The position numbers and the translations under genes were made by a program. DNA of 64,000 nt, from the NCBI RefSeq assembly GCF_027922005.1, contig NZ_BSEV01000014.1, forward strand, positions 1 to 64,000, written 5' to 3'. Shown here piece by piece: positions 40,704 to 53,620 of the stretch. Numbering within the stretch: the first letter of the stretch is position 1; every line of letters starts with the position of its first letter. The stretch comes from Streptosporangium carneum. GTDB taxonomy: Bacteria > Actinomycetota > Actinomycetes > Streptosporangiales > Streptosporangiaceae. The notes under the pieces were generated by a model. The model was not told the DNA's origin. It ran no database searches and was given only the letters and a program-made list of their open reading frames with translations.

Positions 40704-40714
40704 TCACACGGCGG
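40671..40714. repeat. 21-bp direct repeat duplicating the 3' end of the DUF3145 gene
   Basis: GCGCGCCTCGTCACACGGCGG occurs at 40671-40691 and again at 40694-40714, period 23 bp. The second copy covers the last codons and stop of the minus-strand DUF3145 gene, so the first is a duplicated gene end. Confidence 0.8.
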
Positions 40715-41198
40715 CGTGCAGCCAGCGGACCGGGGCGCCCTCGCCCGCGTAGCGGAAGGACTCGAGCTCGGCGTCCCACTGCTTGCCGAGCATGCGGTCC
40801 AGCTCCTCCTCGAGCACCACCCTGCCCTGTCGCGCCATCAGCATGGCCGAGCGCAGCCGGTCCTCGGGGATGAGGATGTCTCCCGTGGCCCCGATCACCG
40901 CCGTGAACGCGCCGAGCGACGGGGTGTAGGCGTGGCGTGATCCGTCGGCGCCCGGTGAGGCGTCCTCCGTGATCTCGAAGCGGATCCGCTGCCAGCCCAT
41001 CAACGACGAGGTGATGGCCGCCGCGGTCCCCTGCCGGGCCTCCCACTCGGCCTGTGCGCGCACGTGACCGGGCGCGGCGGGCTGTGGAGTCCAGGTCAGG
41101 TCTACGGGCACGCCAAGGACACCTGCGACCGCCCATTCAATATGAGGGCACAGCGCAGGCTGAGCTGAGTGGACGTAAAGCACGCCACGAGCAGACAC
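40704..41198 (-). CDS. DUF3145 family protein
   Basis: A 164-residue cytosolic protein: GVLYVHSAQPALCPHIEWAV, then LTWTPQPAAPGHVRAQAEWE, SSLMGWQRIRFEITED and MLMARQGRVVLEEELDRMLG. DUF3145 is restricted to actinobacteria and typically lies beside the fab operon, as here. Function unknown. The GTG start at 41198 and the length match the family. Confidence 0.88.
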   Translation of the reverse strand: MSARGVLYVHSAQPALCPHIEWAVAGVLGVPVDLTWTPQPAAPGHVRAQAEWEARQGTAAAITSSLMGWQRIRFEITEDASPGADGSRHAYTPSLGAFTAVIGATGDILIPEDRLRSAMLMARQGRVVLEEELDRMLGKQWDAELESFRYAGEGAPVRWLHAAV

Positions 41199-41401
41199 CG
41201 GACCTCCCGTTTCGTACGAGGTGCGCCTTCCCCAACGGCCTCGCCAGGATGATCACAAGTGACTGAAGGAGAGACTACCGTCGGTTGTGACGCCGCACCA
41301 GTGGGGGGTCATACCGAGATGTTGCGACGCGAGGGCACGACTACGGCATCCTCTGAAAGGAAAACACCCATCGACCTGGTGATCAACCCCTGGAGTGCCG
41401 G

Positions 41402-42463
41402 ATGGACGCCGATATCGAACAGGTGGGGCCCGGCGCGGGAGCGCAGGCGCTGATCAGGCCCGGCCAGCTGCTCACCGACGCCTCAGGGGCCGCGGCCGCC
41501 GCCAGATGGACCATCGCCGTGGCCGAGGCGGACGGGATCTTCCGCGTGCGGCTCTCTCCGGGGGTCGACGTCTGCGACCTGGTGACCACGATGCGTGCCC
41601 AGGGTCACACCGCCTCCCCCAACCACGTCCTGGTGGGTCAGCCCCTCTTCTTCGGGGGCCCCGCCTCCCGCCCCTTCCCCGCCGACCCCGTCCCCGCCCC
41701 GCGGGCCGCCGGGTCCGGCGGGAGCACGGCGTCCGTGGCGGTCGCGGACACCGGCCTGGCCGCGCACCCCTGGTGGCACGAGCGTCCCTGGTTCGAGGAG
41801 CGACGGCACGAGGCGGCCGACCTGCCCGACTCGGACGGCGACGGCCTGATGGACCCCCAGGCCGGGCACGGGACGTTCGTCACCGGACTGGTCCTGCGAT
41901 CGGCCCCGGAGGCACAGGTGCGCCCGCTGCGGGTGCTGGACGGCCACGGCCTCGGGGACGAGGCGGGGTTGCTGCGCGTGCTGGGCAGGCTCAGGAACGA
42001 CCCACCGGACGTGCTCAACCTCTCCTTCGGCGGGCACACCTTCGACGACCGCCCCTCCCCGCTGGTCGAGGCCTCGCTGGCCGGGCTGGCGGGCACGGTC
42101 GTGGTGGCCTGCGCGGGCAACACGGCCTCGACGCGCCCGTTCTGGCCCGCCGCGCTGCCCGAGGTGGTCGCCGTGGGCGCGCTGGACACGACCGAGGCGG
42201 CCAGGGCGCCGTTCTCCGCGCACGGCCCGTGGGTGAACGCCTGCGCCAGGGGCGAATGGCTGACGAGCGCCTTCCTGCGCCACGGGGCCTTTCAGGGATA
42301 CGCCCGGTGGAGCGGGACCTCCTTCGCCGCGGCCGTGGTCAGCGGGGCGATCGCGGCGGCGACCGTCGAGCGGACCTCGAAGGAGGCCGCGGCGCACGTC
42401 CTCGATCCGTTGCGGACCCGGCAAATTCCCGATCTGGGGGTTGTCGTGCCCACGCCAAGGTAA
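41402..42463 (+). CDS. Subtilisin-like serine protease (S8), apparently cytosolic
   Basis: A 353-residue protein with the catalytic triad Asp116 (VAVADTGLAAH), His156 (GHGTFVTG) and Ser307 (SGTSFAAAVVSG); the oxyanion Asn lies in VACAGNTAS. An N-terminal region of about 100 residues could act as propeptide or recognition domain. No signal peptide or membrane anchor is visible, unlike mycosins and secreted subtilisins. It is followed after 61 bp by a sigma factor, a small protein and a CHAT protease, all on the same strand. Confidence 0.88.
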   Translation: MDADIEQVGPGAGAQALIRPGQLLTDASGAAAAARWTIAVAEADGIFRVRLSPGVDVCDLVTTMRAQGHTASPNHVLVGQPLFFGGPASRPFPADPVPAPRAAGSGGSTASVAVADTGLAAHPWWHERPWFEERRHEAADLPDSDGDGLMDPQAGHGTFVTGLVLRSAPEAQVRPLRVLDGHGLGDEAGLLRVLGRLRNDPPDVLNLSFGGHTFDDRPSPLVEASLAGLAGTVVVACAGNTASTRPFWPAALPEVVAVGALDTTEAARAPFSAHGPWVNACARGEWLTSAFLRHGAFQGYARWSGTSFAAAVVSGAIAAATVERTSKEAAAHVLDPLRTRQIPDLGVVVPTPR

Positions 42464-42524
42464 AGTCTCACCCAAAGTCTTCGCATGAACACCCAGAGTG
42501 TTCGACGTGGCCTCGGAGGCGCCG

Positions 42525-43097
42525 GTGAGTGACCAGCACACGATCGACGCCGCACTGGCAGGCGACCAGGCGGCGTGGGACGCGCTGGTCACCCGCTTCT
42601 CCGGCAGGCTCTGGTCGGCTGTTCGCGCCTACGGCCTGAGCGCGGCGGACGCGGCCGACGCGGTGCAGGGGACATGGCTGCGGCTGGTCGAGAACCTGCA
42701 CACCATCCGTGATCCGGAGCGGATCGGGGCGTGGCTGCTCACCACGGCCAGGCGCGAGGCCTCCCTTCTGAGCAGGCGCAACCGGGGCGAACGACTCATC
42801 GGGGACCCGGCGATCACCGAGCACTCCGACTCCGGCCCTCCGCGAACCGGAAACGTCCATCCCGATCCGGCGCTGGCCGTGCTCTCCGCCGACGAGGGCC
42901 GCCGGTTGTGGCGGACCGTCGAGACGATGCACGAGCCGTGCCGCTCGCTGCTCCTGCTGATGGCGACGGCGCCGGACGCGGGAGTCCACCAGCTGGCCGG
43001 ACGTCTGGGCATGCCCAGCGGCAGTTACGGCCCCACCCGGGGCCGCTGCCTGAACCGGCTACGCACCATGCTCACCGCCCAGGAGGCTCAACCGTGA
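42525..43097 (+). CDS. ECF-like RNA polymerase sigma factor of the S8/CHAT locus
   Basis: A 190-residue protein. Region 2 covers DQAAWDALVTRFSGRLWSAV, DAADAVQGTWLRLVEN and RIGAWLLTTARREA; region 4 covers LWRTVETMHEPCRSLLLLM and HQLAGRLGMPSGSYGPTRGR. GTG 42525 is preceded by GGAGG with 5-base spacing, better than the GTG at 42498. The stop overlaps the next start (GTGA). No typical transmembrane anti-sigma gene is adjacent; the next small protein or the CHAT protein may take that role. Confidence 0.85.
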   Translation: MSDQHTIDAALAGDQAAWDALVTRFSGRLWSAVRAYGLSAADAADAVQGTWLRLVENLHTIRDPERIGAWLLTTARREASLLSRRNRGERLIGDPAITEHSDSGPPRTGNVHPDPALAVLSADEGRRLWRTVETMHEPCRSLLLLMATAPDAGVHQLAGRLGMPSGSYGPTRGRCLNRLRTMLTAQEAQP

Positions 43098-43558
43098 CCC
43101 GACATCCCCCCGCGATCGACGACGAGTCCCTGGTCGCCGCGCTCCGCCTGGCGGCGGGCAGGGATCCCGTGCCCGCGCACGTCTCGGCCGCGGCGAGGGC
43201 GGTCTTCGGTCTGCGGGTTCCGGGCGCCTCGGCCGCCCTCCCCGTGGCGACGGCCGCCCCGCTGGGGGTCCGGTCCGCGGACGAGGCGCGGCTGTTGCGC
43301 TTCACCGCCGCCGAGCTCACGGTGGAGCTGGAGATCACCTCTGTGGACGGCCTGGTGGACCTGGCCGGGCAGGTGTCGCCTCTTCCCGAGACGGGCACGA
43401 CGGTCGAGGTGCGCACGCCGCACCTCACCCAGTCGCGTGAGGTCTCGGCGACGGGCCAGTTCGCCGTCACCGGACTGCCTCCCGGCTGGTTCAGCGTGGT
43501 GTGCAGACGGCCTGAGCACTGCCCGGTCGTCACGAGCTGGACCAGGATCCGTCCGTAG
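43094..43558 (+). CDS. Small beta-rich protein between sigma factor and CHAT protease
   Basis: A 154-residue soluble protein. The N-terminal helix (DDESLVAALRLAAGRDPVPAH) is followed by a domain with ELTVELEITSVDGLVDLAGQ and ATGQFAVTGLPPGWFSVVCR, a pattern of carboxypeptidase-regulatory-like (Ig-like) beta folds. It has no signal peptide. AGGAGG precedes GTG 43094. It is coupled to both neighbours: GTGA overlap in front, stop directly abutting the CHAT start. It could be an adaptor, protease substrate or anti-sigma factor; none is proven. Confidence 0.75.
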   Translation: MTRHPPAIDDESLVAALRLAAGRDPVPAHVSAAARAVFGLRVPGASAALPVATAAPLGVRSADEARLLRFTAAELTVELEITSVDGLVDLAGQVSPLPETGTTVEVRTPHLTQSREVSATGQFAVTGLPPGWFSVVCRRPEHCPVVTSWTRIRP

Positions 43559-46330
43559 GTGGTCTTCGACGACGCGGTCGCCACCGCGGAACGGGCGTTG
43601 GACCTGTCCGGCAGCGATCCCGCACGGGCCAGGGCCCTGGCCCGCGACGTGCTGCGCTCCGTGACCGCGGATCCGGCCAAGGCCACGACAGACCTCTCCA
43701 CGACGACCACGGAACAGCCCGAAGCACCGGCAGACCTCCCCACGACGACCACGACCGCGACAGACCTCCCCACGACGACCACGGAACAGACCGGAGCACC
43801 GGCAGACCTCCCTCCGGTGACCGCGGCCCTCACCAAAACCACAACAGACATCCTCACGACGGCCGCGGGGCACATCGGAGCGACGGGTCCCACCGCGGCG
43901 GGTCGTGCCGACGAGGCGGCGACGGTCGCCCACCGCGCGCTGGCGGTGGCCGCCAGGGAGCTGGGAGATCTGCCGCTGGCCGAGGAGCACCTGAACCTGG
44001 CCGTGAGCATCGCGCTTTCGGCGGGCCTGCGGCACAGGGCGGCGCAGGCCCGTCTCTCGCTGGTCCACGTCAGCACCGAGCTCGGCCATCCCTGGCGGGC
44101 CCTCGCCGTCGCCGAGGCCGCCGAACCCCATCTCGGCCCGGTCGAGGTGGCCAAGCTCGACGTGCACCGGGCCGTGGCGCTGGTCAGGCTCGGCCGCTAC
44201 GCCGAGGCCGTCGACCACTGCGACCGCGCGGCCGGTCTCCTGGAGGATGACACCAGGTTCCTGGCGGGGGCGATGCTCAACCGGGGGCTGGCCAGGGTCT
44301 TCCTCGGGGAGTTCGACACGGCGGAGAGCGATCTGGTCCGGTGCGCGGAGCTGGCCGGGAGCGCGGGCCTGGACCACCTGCTCGCGCTCGCCGAGGGGAA
44401 CCTGCCCTTCCTGGCCGCGCGGCGCGGGGACCTGCCCGCCGCGTTCGCCGCCTACCGGCGCGCGGAGAGCAGCCTGTTCGGCTACCCGGAGCGTCTGGCC
44501 ACGATGCGCTGCGATCTGGCCGAGGCGCTGATCTCGGCCCACCTGCCCGGCGAGGCGCGGGTGCTGCTCGACCTGGCGGTGCCCGAGCTGGCCGCCGCCG
44601 GCGCGGAGGTGGCCCTGGCCGAGGCTCGTCTCCTGCTCGCCAGGGCCGAACTGCGCACAGGCGACCCGCACCGCGCCCTGCGAAGCGCGGAGCGGGCCGC
44701 GGCGGGCCTCGCGGAGCAGGGACGCGCCGTCCTGGTGCCGCTCGCGACCGAGGTCCTCCTGCGGGCGCGGCTGGCACTCGGCCCGTGGAGCGGGGAACTG
44801 CTCGCCGAGACGCTGTCCTGCGCGGACGCCCTCGACGACGCGGGGCACCGGGAGGTGTCCGAGGCGCTCAGGCTCACCGCCGCCGAGGTCGCGCTCGAGA
44901 TGGGTGAGCGCGAGAGCGCGGACGACCAGCTCGCCCGCCTCGCCCGTGGCGGCCCGGGCGTGGTGTCCCGCCACGCGACGGCACTCGTGCGGGAGCTGGC
45001 GGGAGACAGGCGTGGAGCCTTCGCCGCGGTCAGAGCCGGGCTGGCCGAGGTCGGCGCCCGCGCGGCGGCGTTCGAGGACCCGAGGCTGCGCGCCCACGCG
45101 GTCAAGGCAGGCGAGCCGCTGGCCGGGTTCGGGCTCACCCTCGCCCTGCGGACAGGGCGGGCCGGGACGCTCCTGGCCTGGGCCGAGAGGTGGCGGGCGG
45201 TCGCGGGTGGCGCGGGGCGGCCGGTCGCCCCACGTGTGGACGAGCTCAGGGCGGCGCTCCGTGACACGGTCCTGGTGGAGTTCGCCCGCCACGGCGACGA
45301 GCTGGTCGCCGTGGCGGTCACCTCAGAACGCGTCACGCTTCGCCGTCTCGGCTCCTATGCCGCCGTCGCCGAGGCCACGGTCAGGCTCAGGTACGGCCTG
45401 CGCAGAGCCCATCTGCGTGACGGGAACGCCCCCGGCGTCGCCGAGGAGGCGGCGCTGGTCGAGCGGCTGCTGCTCGCTCCGCTGCGGAGCAGCGTCGGCG
45501 ACAGGGCATTGGTCGTCGTGCCGACCGGAGCGCTGCACACCCTGCCGTGGCCGGTCCTGCCGATGAACACCGACCGCCAGGTCTCCGTGGCCTCGGCCGC
45601 CGCCGCCTGGCTGGCCGGACGGCGGGCCGCGGGCGTGAGGACCGGAAGGGTCGTGGCGGTCGCGGGGCCGGGGTTGCGGTACGCGGGGGCGGAGGCGGAC
45701 ATGGTCGCGGGCTGCCATCCGGGAGCCGAGCGGGTCGTGGCGTCGCGCCCGGCGGTGATCTCGGCGCTGCGGCGGGCCGAGGTGGCGCATCTGGCGGCGC
45801 ACGGGACGTTCTGCCCGCGCAGCCCGATGCTTTCCGGCATCGACCTCGACGACGGCAGGCTGATGGCCTACGACCTGCCTCGGCTGCGCACGCCGCCGAG
45901 GCTGGTCGTGCTGTCGGCGTGTGAGGCGGGCATGGCGCACGCCCCCGCCGACGGGGCTCCGCTGGGTCTCGCGGGCGCCTTCCTGTCGCTGGGCACGCAG
46001 TGCGTGGTGGCCAGCCTGGTCCCCGTACGCGACGACGAGACCCTGACGCTCATGACGGCCTTCCACGAACTGCTGGCCTCCGGCTGCTCCCCCGCCCAGG
46101 CGCTCGCCACGGCGAGCGCGAAGACGGAGGTCGCCGGTTTCGTCTGCTTCGGGTACGGCGGCCGGCCCCTGAACCCGCCGACGCGGCCCGCGGATCCGCC
46201 GGTCCAGCCGTTGGAGCGGTCGGCGGGCGGGCCCGGACGGCTCGCGGACCGGCGGTGGCGGCCGGGAGGTCAGCCGGTGGCGACGGGTCGCGACGGGTCG
46301 GCCACCCAGTTGGACCAGGAGCCGACGTAG
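43559..46330 (+). CDS. TPR-CHAT (caspase-like) protease
   Basis: A 923-residue protein. A Thr/Glu/Pro low-complexity stretch (about residues 42-100) is followed by a long TPR-like helical array (for example AATVAHRALAVAARELGDLP, AEEHLNLAVSIALSAGL, HRAVALVRLGRYAEAVDH). The C-terminal CHAT domain has the dyad His748 (AHLAAHGTF) and Cys788 (LVVLSACEAGMAHAP), then GLAGAFLSLGTQCVVASL. CHAT proteases act in signalling and in defence (for example the Craspase TPR-CHAT). The last 60 bp overlap the oppositely oriented sulfurtransferase gene. The start is GTG directly after the previous stop. Confidence 0.9.
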   Translation: MVFDDAVATAERALDLSGSDPARARALARDVLRSVTADPAKATTDLSTTTTEQPEAPADLPTTTTTATDLPTTTTEQTGAPADLPPVTAALTKTTTDILTTAAGHIGATGPTAAGRADEAATVAHRALAVAARELGDLPLAEEHLNLAVSIALSAGLRHRAAQARLSLVHVSTELGHPWRALAVAEAAEPHLGPVEVAKLDVHRAVALVRLGRYAEAVDHCDRAAGLLEDDTRFLAGAMLNRGLARVFLGEFDTAESDLVRCAELAGSAGLDHLLALAEGNLPFLAARRGDLPAAFAAYRRAESSLFGYPERLATMRCDLAEALISAHLPGEARVLLDLAVPELAAAGAEVALAEARLLLARAELRTGDPHRALRSAERAAAGLAEQGRAVLVPLATEVLLRARLALGPWSGELLAETLSCADALDDAGHREVSEALRLTAAEVALEMGERESADDQLARLARGGPGVVSRHATALVRELAGDRRGAFAAVRAGLAEVGARAAAFEDPRLRAHAVKAGEPLAGFGLTLALRTGRAGTLLAWAERWRAVAGGAGRPVAPRVDELRAALRDTVLVEFARHGDELVAVAVTSERVTLRRLGSYAAVAEATVRLRYGLRRAHLRDGNAPGVAEEAALVERLLLAPLRSSVGDRALVVVPTGALHTLPWPVLPMNTDRQVSVASAAAAWLAGRRAAGVRTGRVVAVAGPGLRYAGAEADMVAGCHPGAERVVASRPAVISALRRAEVAHLAAHGTFCPRSPMLSGIDLDDGRLMAYDLPRLRTPPRLVVLSACEAGMAHAPADGAPLGLAGAFLSLGTQCVVASLVPVRDDETLTLMTAFHELLASGCSPAQALATASAKTEVAGFVCFGYGGRPLNPPTRPADPPVQPLERSAGGPGRLADRRWRPGGQPVATGRDGSATQLDQEPT
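43688..43811 (+). repeat. Minisatellite inside the CHAT gene
   Basis: A 52-bp unit occurs at 43688-43739 and 43760-43811 with three mismatches, plus a shorter middle copy of its ACGACGACCACG part. It encodes the repeated TTTTEQ/APADLP linker. The period is 72 bp, in frame. Confidence 0.75.
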
Positions 46331-52822: not shown

Positions 52823-53279
52823 CCGCCGTTCCCCGCCCCGCTTTCACGACCAGGCCGCACCGCCTCACGCCGCTTTCACAACACCGCCGCCTCAAGCCCC
52901 TCAGCCAGCCTCGGCCAGCCACCCGGTTCCACAGCCCGCCGTACCACTCCTCCGCCCGCCCGCCGCACCGCCTCTCAGCCCGGCCGCCACTTCACCCGCC
53001 CGCCGTATCGCCTCCTACGGCCGGCCACGAGAGCGCCGACCGCCGCACGCCCTCCTGCCTCCATCCGGCGCTCCCCAGGCTCACCAGGCCGGTCACCGCG
53101 ACGCCCCGCTGCCGGCGGCCCTTCTGGGACGCCTGTCAGAGGTGGGGTGTCGCGACGCGTTCGTCGTGTCGGCGGTCTCTCCCCCACCGCCCCGATCCTC
53201 CGCACGCCGGTGCGGAGAGCGGCGACACGAACCTGACCGGCGCCGAGGAGCAACGCGGGCGGAAGGCCCCCGGCCAAGG
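52823..53279. other. Intergenic low-complexity stretch
   Basis: About 457 bp of C/G-rich sequence with recurring CCGCCGCACCGCCTC-like words. No gene, hairpin pair or RNA that I can support. It leads directly into the tandem repeats at 53280. Confidence 0.5.
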
Positions 53280-53620
53280 TCAGGAGATGACCGCCAAGGT
53301 GAGAGGCGGCACGACCGGAGGTAACCCTCGGTCGACGTCAGGAAGTGACTGCCAAGAGGAGAGGCGGCACGACCGGAGGTAACCCTCGGTCGAGGTCAGG
53401 AAGTGACCGCCAAGAGGAGAGATGGCATGGCCGAAGGCCCCGGCCAAGGGCAGAAGGCGACCGCCAAGAGGAGAGGCGGCACGACCAAAGGCCCTCGGCC
53501 AAGGTCAGGAGGCGACCGCCAAGGTGAGAGGCGGCACAACCGGAGGTAACCCTCGGCCGAGGTCAGGAAGTGACCGCCAAGGTGAGAGGCAGCACGGCCG
53601 GGGCTCCGGCGTGGCGGAGC
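53280..53620. repeat. Tandem array (about 58 bp x 6) derived from the 3' end of the RecQ-like gene
   Basis: Units begin near 53280, 53338, 53396, 53450, 53505 and 53563, each starting TCAGGAAGTGACCGCCAAG or a close variant. The last unit contains the actual end of the minus-strand helicase gene (the TCA is its stop). The other five are downstream copies of the last ~10 codons plus a GGAGGTAACCCTCGG-type spacer. Periods are 54-58 bp with few mismatches, so the duplication is fairly recent. Confidence 0.85.

What the first reader, a model, noticed from the sequence alone, without database searches (positions are those of the whole stretch)
41402..46330. Four-gene unit: cytosolic subtilisin, sigma factor, beta-rich protein and TPR-CHAT protease
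Two proteases of different classes (Ser triad D116/H156/S307; caspase-like H748/C788) flank a sigma factor and a small soluble protein, with the last three genes overlapping or abutting. Neither protease shows an export signal. A proteolytic cascade that releases the sigma factor, for stress response or abortive defence, would explain the set. The locus sits beside core genes, so it is probably an ancestral system.
Basis: partly seen in the sequence, partly recalled or inferred. Interest (0 to 1): 0.8.

Follow-up and report, generated by a model that had tools for sequence, protein, structure and literature searches.

The report
Protease-controlled sigma-factor switch in actinobacteria
Four neighbouring genes, kept together across many actinobacteria, look like a switch in which a caspase-like protease would cut the inhibitor of a gene-control protein, a CRISPR-free cousin of a recently described immune switch.

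Summary
The window (a Streptosporangium relative) encodes an S8 subtilisin, an ECF-like sigma factor, a 154-aa protein (SP) and a TPR-CHAT protease as one unit. Of 77 loci picked by an SP match, 71 have this sigma factor directly upstream, 62 CHAT, 54 S8, 51 all four; order varies (24 collinear, 14 with CHAT divergent). Readable catalytic residues are intact. The place is conserved in the window's family.

New: SP is most likely an anti-sigma factor. Deep homologues, also beside sigma and TPR-CHAT, have an anti-sigma-like N-terminus. By sequence the CHAT domain's nearest solved relatives are DdvA, a transmembrane anti-sigma factor, then the Craspase TPR-CHAT/Csx29 proteases, which cut a sigma inhibitor. 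SP has Arg at one loop position in 95 of 96 rows: a candidate cut site. Other lineages show an autoregulatory promoter, GTATCA-N16/17-CTC, absent from the window's lineage.

Reading: a protease-gated sigma switch, a CRISPR-free variant of CASP and DdvA-DdvS. Binding, cleavage, trigger and any defence role are unproven.

The parts
41402..42463 (+). S8 subtilisin-like serine protease, 353 aa; triad D116/H156/S307, oxyanion N240; N-terminal ~85 aa propeptide-like (by eye); no signal peptide seen
   Evidence: D/H/N/S in 54 of 54 locus homologues
42498..43097 (+). ECF-like sigma factor (sigma-70 region 2; C-terminal GS-GPTR-RCL-LR segment read by eye as region 4); likelier start 42525
43094..43558 (+). 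SP, 154 aa, proposed soluble minimal anti-sigma factor: helices 11-20 and 32-38, flexible loop with R60, Ig/FN3-like beta-sandwich to 152
43271..43273 (+). codon of SP R60, proposed P1 residue of the scissile bond (inference)
   Evidence: R in 95 of 96 aligned rows; loop motif in 85 of 87
43559..46330 (+). TPR-CHAT protease, 923 aa; TPR solenoid about 113-549, CHAT about 562-868, dyad H748/C788; D825 possible S1 acidic residue (inference)
41199..41401 (.). intergenic region between divergent DUF3145 (40707-41198, -) and S8; first ~130 nt highly conserved in the genus; presumably holds the operon promoter, but no GTATCA motif

Best explanation
A cytosolic protease-gated sigma switch. SP is a soluble, reduced anti-sigma factor: its two N-terminal helices (read as helices 1 and 4 of a class I anti-sigma domain) hold the sigma factor, and its beta-sandwich presents it to the TPR-CHAT protease. 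A signal read by the TPR solenoid activates CHAT, which cuts SP in the flexible loop after Arg60 and separates the sigma-binding helices from the beta-domain; S8 most likely finishes off the fragment or relays activation. Freed sigma then transcribes its operon and, in some lineages, a linked LuxR-type regulator. Shown by computation: gene set, intact catalytic residues, co-inheritance, anti-sigma-like homologues, the near-invariant Arg, the autoregulatory motif in other lineages. Inferred: SP-sigma binding, cleavage, its site, the order of the proteases, the signal.
For: SP goes with sigma: directly upstream in 71 of 77 loci; within about 1.5 kb in 22 of 22 loci of a deep-branching class, where the TPR-CHAT model also hits in 20 of 22. 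In that class the N-terminus matches anti-sigma models (NCBIfam antisigma 17 of 20, best 6.9e-7; zf-HC2 12 of 20 and RskA_N 5 of 20). hhalign ties window-type SP (res. 24-141) to it: probability 96.6%, E 6.5e-10. CHAT domain matches DdvA (1.1e-14) and Craspase TPR-CHAT (1.4e-8; chain named Csx29 1.6e-6). R60 in 95 of 96 rows in a loop of varying length. CHAT H 60 and C 59 of 62, the rest unreadable gaps. GTATCA in 24 of 72 operon upstream regions against 1.5 expected, with CTC at N16/17 in 21 of the 24, 12 of the 14 not read by eye beforehand.
Against: Window SP lacks helices 2-3 of a normal anti-sigma domain and on its own hits no anti-sigma model; the hhalign match is mostly beta-domain plus the helix-4 region. 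For the deep class the one member shown in full lies below the curated cut-offs, and the PDB hits of its N-terminus are not significant (RskA 0.075, DdvA 0.21, an unrelated MHC chain 0.6). No CHAT was found in the fetched stretch of 15 of 77 loci; S8 in only 4 of 22 deep-class loci, with short flanks. The window's lineage lacks the GTATCA promoter. R60 could be structural; all 87 loops hold at least one Arg, 2.3 on average, so the aligner may help. Csx29 cuts Csx30 in a small loop of its C-terminal domain (residues 427-429), not in the linker between the domains (PMC10028731 passages). No complex was modelled.
Confidence: 0.5

Rival explanations
1. SP is the anti-sigma factor, but the proteases are outputs: sigma is released by another signal (for example a ligand on the beta-sandwich) and induces S8 and perhaps CHAT, which attack other targets, as in regulated cell death or stress proteolysis.
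For: In several lineages the GTATCA promoter lies directly before S8-sigma-SP, so S8 is a product of sigma activity. SIG-SP pairs occur without CHAT/S8 in the fetched stretch, e.g. L075, L078, L080, L085, L091.
Against: GTATCA lies upstream of CHAT on its own strand in 1 of 62 loci (L069). SP keeps the Arg loop. SP, S8 and CHAT genes without a module sigma in L101 suggest a direct SP-protease link.
Confidence: 0.25
2. S8, not CHAT, cuts SP (or CHAT activates the S8 zymogen, or the reverse), so the order of the two proteases differs from the best explanation.
For: [quoted passage not shown] triad kept in 54 of 54.
Against: S8 is found less often than CHAT: 54 against 62 of 77 loci, 4 against 20 of 22 in the deep class. 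Arg at P1 is unusual for subtilisins but known for separase-type proteases (recalled).
Confidence: 0.15
3. An anti-phage or abortive-infection system, a CRISPR-free counterpart of CASP or of the DdvS-controlled island (can be true together with the best explanation).
For: CHAT relatives Csx29 and DdvA belong to sigma-linked defence systems; weak PADLOC BovA match for 17 of 27 CHAT domains. Kaur et al. predict immunity systems joining caspases, ECF sigma factors and TPR proteins (PMC8195603 passages).
Against: Fixed chromosomal locus beside fab genes and DUF3145 in the window's family; no PADLOC hit in 10 flanking proteins; SP in no phage record and no true plasmid record.
Confidence: 0.15

Closest known systems
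CASP (Cas7-11-Csx29 with Csx30 and CASP-sigma; type III-E CRISPR)
   Same: TPR-CHAT protease, sigma inhibitor and ECF-like sigma in one locus; CHAT domain homologous (Craspase TPR-CHAT 1.4e-8, chain named Csx29 1.6e-6; Foldseek 8eey_B 1.3e-11)
   Different: No CRISPR array seen at the locus; Csx29 NCBIfam score 12.6 against a cut-off of 300; SP is 154 aa, Csx30 about 565 (fragment numbering), and the two were not compared directly; adds S8
[quoted passage not shown] DdvS controls an antiphage island, PMC12288465 passage)
   Same: Closest solved relative of the CHAT domain by sequence (1.1e-14); one 991-aa DdvA chain holds CHAT and, recalled and hinted at by a weak hit to residues 7-33, an anti-sigma domain, so fuses what is split here
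   Different: DdvA is transmembrane and a single chain; here anti-sigma and CHAT are separate proteins and S8 is added; the DdvA papers are not held
Class I anti-sigma factors (RskA, RseA, RsiW)
   Same: Deep-branching SP homologues have a matching N-terminal region; window SP keeps two helices that could be 1 and 4, those that contact sigma4 and sigma2 (PMC7406223 passages)
   Different: No TM or zinc motif, helices 2-3 missing in the window form, a beta-sandwich attached
Predicted EACC2/caspase systems with ECF sigma factor and TPR protein (Kaur et al. 2021, PMC8195603 passages)
   Same: Idea of a caspase-type protease in one neighbourhood with an ECF sigma and a TPR protein
   Different: Other constant domains (EACC2, DUF1822); no SP-like anti-sigma, no S8 mentioned in the passages seen
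Separase
   Same: Top Foldseek hit of the TPR-CHAT model (9hma, 4.5e-12); ctSPD Z 25.2, rmsd 3.5 over 300 residues
   Different: Bacterial, operon-borne; substrate unknown

Membership tests
CASP / type III-E CRISPR protease system | Csx29 family membership of the CHAT protein | tested here: not met
   NF041237 12.6 bits, cut-off 300
CASP / type III-E CRISPR protease system | CRISPR array beside the locus | tested here: not met
   only tandem repeats without spacers and two-copy repeats in window 30000-60000 (repeats of 23 nt or more within 120 nt)
CASP / type III-E CRISPR protease system | Cas7-11 partner | not tested
   no search of the genome for Cas7-11 was made
CASP / type III-E CRISPR protease system | protease cuts the sigma inhibitor | not testable with these tools
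   needs biochemistry
Class I anti-sigma factor (SP) | anti-sigma domain model match, window protein | tested here: not met
   no anti-sigma hit in Pfam or NCBIfam
Class I anti-sigma factor (SP) | anti-sigma domain in homologues at the same gene position | tested here: inconclusive
   NF052375 17 of 20, best 6.9e-7; the member shown scores 23.3 against 100; zf-HC2 12 of 20
Class I anti-sigma factor (SP) | gene next to an ECF-like sigma | tested here: met
   71 of 77 loci; 22 of 22 in the deep class
Class I anti-sigma factor (SP) | binds and inhibits sigma | not testable with these tools
   needs pull-down and transcription assay
CHAT (clan CD) protease | CHAT domain above cut-off with His/Cys dyad | tested here: met
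   114.8 bits against 24; H 60 and C 59 of 62, the rest gaps
Peptidase S8 | Asp/His/Ser triad and S8 model | tested here: met
   88.9 bits against 21.8; 54 of 54
ECF sigma factor | sigma2 and sigma4, no sigma3 | tested here: inconclusive
   sigma2 met; sigma4 only by eye in the window, sub-threshold Pfam region 4 in homologue L106
Known anti-phage systems (PADLOC) | system-level match | tested here: inconclusive
   only weak BovA and subtilase component hits; none in 10 neighbours

The most novel reading that the evidence does not exclude
A widespread, chromosome-fixed, CRISPR-independent class of protease-gated sigma switches in actinobacteria: a separase-like TPR-CHAT cuts a minimal two-helix anti-sigma factor after one near-invariant Arg, with a cytosolic subtilisin as second protease. 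CASP (separate genes, RNA-guided) and DdvA (anti-sigma and CHAT in one chain) would be specialised relatives of this general CHAT/anti-sigma/sigma design.
Probability: 0.4. Interest if true: 0.8.

Novelty: new variant of a known kind. Interest (0 to 1): 0.62.

Why it matters
It would show that CHAT proteases acting on sigma-factor inhibitors are a general bacterial signalling design rather than a CRISPR oddity, give a likely function to a protein (SP) that no Pfam or NCBIfam model names above cut-off, and offer a directly testable cut site and promoter in culturable actinobacteria. It also places separase-like proteolysis in ordinary transcriptional control. In the library searched I saw no paper describing the four-gene set, but I saw only listings: 20 of 26, 18 of 18, 15 of 65, none of 0, 25 of 2,242. 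The ECF classification paper and both DdvA papers are not held, so earlier mention cannot be excluded.

Tried and rejected
Considered and rejected: membership in Csx29/CASP; a mobile defence island (against this, CHAT also weakly matches, over 26% of its length, a 1.16-Mb Streptomyces plasmid record); a chance neighbourhood. PDB sequence search for SP: one hit up to E 1, ribosomal protein L3 at 0.83. SP fold: no Foldseek match at E 0.001 or better; its beta-sandwich aligns with many Ig/FN3-like and copper-binding folds (CrdA Z 9.4, rmsd 2.2, 89 residues), a common arrangement that names no function; the helices were barely tested there. The promoter pattern with 2 mismatches in the window: 6 matches, 7.9 expected. 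Neighbour clustering timed out and was redone with called genes. Sigma-SP complex modelling and coupling analysis were not done. Correlated distances between the four proteins (r 0.67-0.86) do not prove contact, as shared ancestry gives the same.

Row choices: one search lists 50 places outside the window; I fetched 40, leaving out six same-genus first copies (76-87% identical SP) and four weaker or second hits. One search lists 38 rows outside the window; I fetched 36, leaving out the weakest hit and one second copy. One search scored only 10 candidates per genome, so 35 of 396 is a lower bound. The neighbour models were built on the first 40 loci and the window. The promoter pattern was read by eye, so S8 hits are largely circular; the 6 regulator hits are not; ten regions already read were set aside for the 14 of 62 and 12 of 14 counts. 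The 12 genomes were chosen as holders of the module (G000, the window's own, has no match to the pattern). In one search one place appears twice (L106 = L132); L139 and L150, truncated, were dropped; one search drops nine same-genus rows. In one search flanks are mostly 1.5 kb, so the CHAT count rests largely on the TPR part of the model.
Full report
The four genes are present as described. On the + strand: S8 (41402-42463), sigma (42498-43097, likelier start GTG 42525 by eye), SP (43094-43558) and TPR-CHAT (43559-46330). Sigma and SP overlap by four bases and CHAT starts on the base after the SP stop. Pfam names S8, sigma-70 region 2 and TPR/CHAT; SP has only a sub-threshold CarboxypepD_reg hit. 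NCBIfam gives no family for SP and a Csx29 score of 12.6 against a cut-off of 300 for the CHAT protein.

Conservation. SP is found in 43 of 60 sampled genomes (own included) and, as a lower bound, 35 of 396 across the phylum (own included). I fetched 76 places and, with the window, counted neighbours in 77 loci chosen by SP: sigma directly upstream on the same strand in 71, CHAT in 62, S8 in 54, all four in 51. With the ten same-genus first-copy loci counted once the figures are 62, 53, 45 and 42 of 68. Orders: S8>sigma>SP>CHAT in 24, CHAT divergent from S8>sigma>SP in 14, sigma>SP>CHAT without S8 in 7. Some loci are cut by contig ends. The own genome holds only 2 CHAT and 19 S8 matches, so this is far from chance.

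Inheritance as a unit. Some same-genus genomes hold two modules. I compared two. In G005 the four proteins of the second copy are 33-36% identical to the first copy in the same genome, but 49-70% identical to the modules of another family; G010 gives the same picture (29-33% against 54-77%). The window's copy lies beside DUF3145, fatty-acid synthesis genes, a rhodanese and a CoA-ligase/acetyltransferase gene. A DUF3145 gene lies near SP in 22 of 77 loci and other flanking families in up to 21, or 12-14 after collapsing the genus. No SP match in 50,697 phage records; the only 'plasmid' record with SP is an 11.85-Mb Nonomuraea record, evidently a chromosome; CHAT hits that record and, over 26% of its length, a 1.16-Mb Streptomyces record. 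Sigma and S8 were not searched there. The named relatives found (21 loci) are Streptosporangium, Planomonospora, Planobispora, Nonomuraea, Microtetraspora and Thermoactinospora.

Catalysis and location. S8 Asp, His, Asn and Ser are present in 54 of 54; CHAT His in 60 and Cys in 59 of 62, the rest being gaps, at least partly from cut-off sequences. No N-terminal hydrophobic stretch was seen in S8 or CHAT; hydrophobic windows further in are common (13 of 54 S8, 44 of 62 CHAT) and lie in the enzyme domain in the window; 2 of 77 SP pass the threshold. CHAT D825 is Asp in 58 of 59 readable rows. In the alignments the corresponding stretch reads vrsNkT in Craspase TPR-CHAT and piPDlD in DdvA; that this Asp might form an S1 pocket for Arg, by analogy with separase, is recalled and inferred.

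SP as an anti-sigma factor. Window SP is predicted (AlphaFold2, mean pLDDT 78, 22 sequences) as two short helices, 11-20 and 32-38, a loop with pLDDT below 50 at 61-63, and an Ig/FN3-like sandwich. On its own it matches no anti-sigma model. Its deep homologues do: in one actinobacterial class, 18 of 39 genomes carry a longer form; sigma lies in 22 of 22 of these loci, the TPR-CHAT model hits in 20 and S8 in 4 of 22, within flanks of mostly 1.5 kb. The first ~80 residues match NCBIfam 'anti-sigma factor' in 17 of 20 members (best 6.9e-7), zf-HC2 in 12 and RskA_N in 5 of 20. The one member shown in full is below the curated cut-offs; scores of the others are not listed. The best PDB hits, RskA (0.075) and DdvA (0.21), are suggestive, not significant. 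hhalign joins the two SP forms over window residues 24-141 (96.6%, 6.5e-10). Class I anti-sigma domains contact sigma4 by helix 1 and sigma2 by helix 4, which is joined through a flexible linker (PMC7406223 passages); window SP looks like a form reduced to these two helices (inference).

The protease and its relatives. The TPR-CHAT model (mean pLDDT 79) matches separase, Csx29 and DdvA; in the second look Csx29 aligns at Z 28.1 but with rmsd 14-15, DdvA at Z 23.3, rmsd 7.0 over 590 residues, and the top of the list is shared with plain TPR proteins. A CHAT-domain profile hits DdvA at 1.1e-14, Craspase TPR-CHAT at 1.4e-8 and the chain named Csx29 at 1.6e-6. Csx29 cuts Csx30, a sigma inhibitor, when target RNA is bound (PMC10028731 passages). 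DdvS controls an antiphage island (PMC12288465 passage). So two relatives already join CHAT, anti-sigma and sigma functions.

Candidate cut site. In 96 SP rows position 60 is Arg in 95 (Gln in L103) although the loop around it varies (7-15 residues before, 3-16 after). The loop motif [VILMAT]R[GSATND] occurs in 85 of 87 loops against a mean of 35.8 and a maximum of 51 in 2000 shuffles. Position -1 is mostly V/L/I, +1 mostly S/G/A/T. A conserved Arg in an otherwise loose linker between the proposed sigma-binding helices and the sandwich is what a cut site would look like; a structural role is not excluded.

Promoter. In the divergent layout, TGTATCA-N14-GRSTC precedes S8. In 12 genomes chosen for holding the module the pattern has 27 matches in 11 genomes, against 5 for the reversed control: 11 before S8, 6 before a LuxR-type regulator with the start codon exactly 8 bases after the motif in all six, 10 elsewhere. 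More broadly GTATCA lies upstream of 24 of 72 operons (shuffle mean 1.5, maximum 7 in 300 shuffles; reverse strand 5), with CTC 16 or 17 bases on in 21 of the 24. Setting aside ten regions already read by eye, it is 14 of 62, and 12 of those 14 have the CTC. Upstream of CHAT on its own strand GTATCA occurs in 1 of 62. So in those lineages sigma very probably feeds its own operon but not CHAT directly. The window's lineage has no such motif, so its operon is driven differently.

Mechanism and verdict. The best reading is a cytosolic, protease-gated sigma switch. The anti-sigma role of SP is likely (about 0.8); cutting by CHAT at R60 is a specific but untested prediction (about 0.45); the role of S8 and the trigger are open. 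It works like CASP and DdvA-DdvS; it fails the CASP membership tests that were run, and membership with DdvA was not formally tested. A related idea, caspases beside ECF sigma factors and TPR proteins, has been predicted for other systems (PMC8195603 passages). Defence is possible, not shown.

Noticed in passing
41199-41330: About 130 nt of non-coding sequence between DUF3145 and S8 is highly conserved in the genus, by eye more than the start of S8; probably the DUF3145 promoter/leader.
   Followed up: partly
43674-43859: Imprecise 42/30-nt tandem repeats lie in the part of the CHAT gene that encodes a Thr/Pro-rich, low-confidence insertion (residues 38-111).
   Followed up: partly
53267-53607: Six head-to-tail copies of a 58-nt repeat; not examined further.
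   Followed up: no
L099, L101: Duplicated SP and CHAT genes, with S8 once in L099 and twice in L101; no module sigma was found in L101.
   Followed up: no
L045, L051, L056, L060, L067: Five loci without S8 in which the sigma's C-terminal GS-GPTR segment is degraded.
   Followed up: no
L152, L159, L161, L164, L165, L169: A LuxR-type regulator gene (GerE domain in the representative of L065) with the sigma promoter motif and its start codon exactly 8 nt downstream, suggesting leaderless mRNA and a small regulon.
   Followed up: partly
L078, L080, L085, L091: Sigma-SP pairs without CHAT or S8 in the fetched stretch, in a similar gene setting by eye.
   Followed up: no
L093:7643-8134: An SP gene convergent with a divergent sigma factor rather than downstream of the usual partner.
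   Followed up: no
L097, upstream of the called S8 start: In-frame sequence reads like a Tat signal (RRRILALSALAAAAPFG, translated by eye), so S8 may be exported in that lineage.
   Followed up: no
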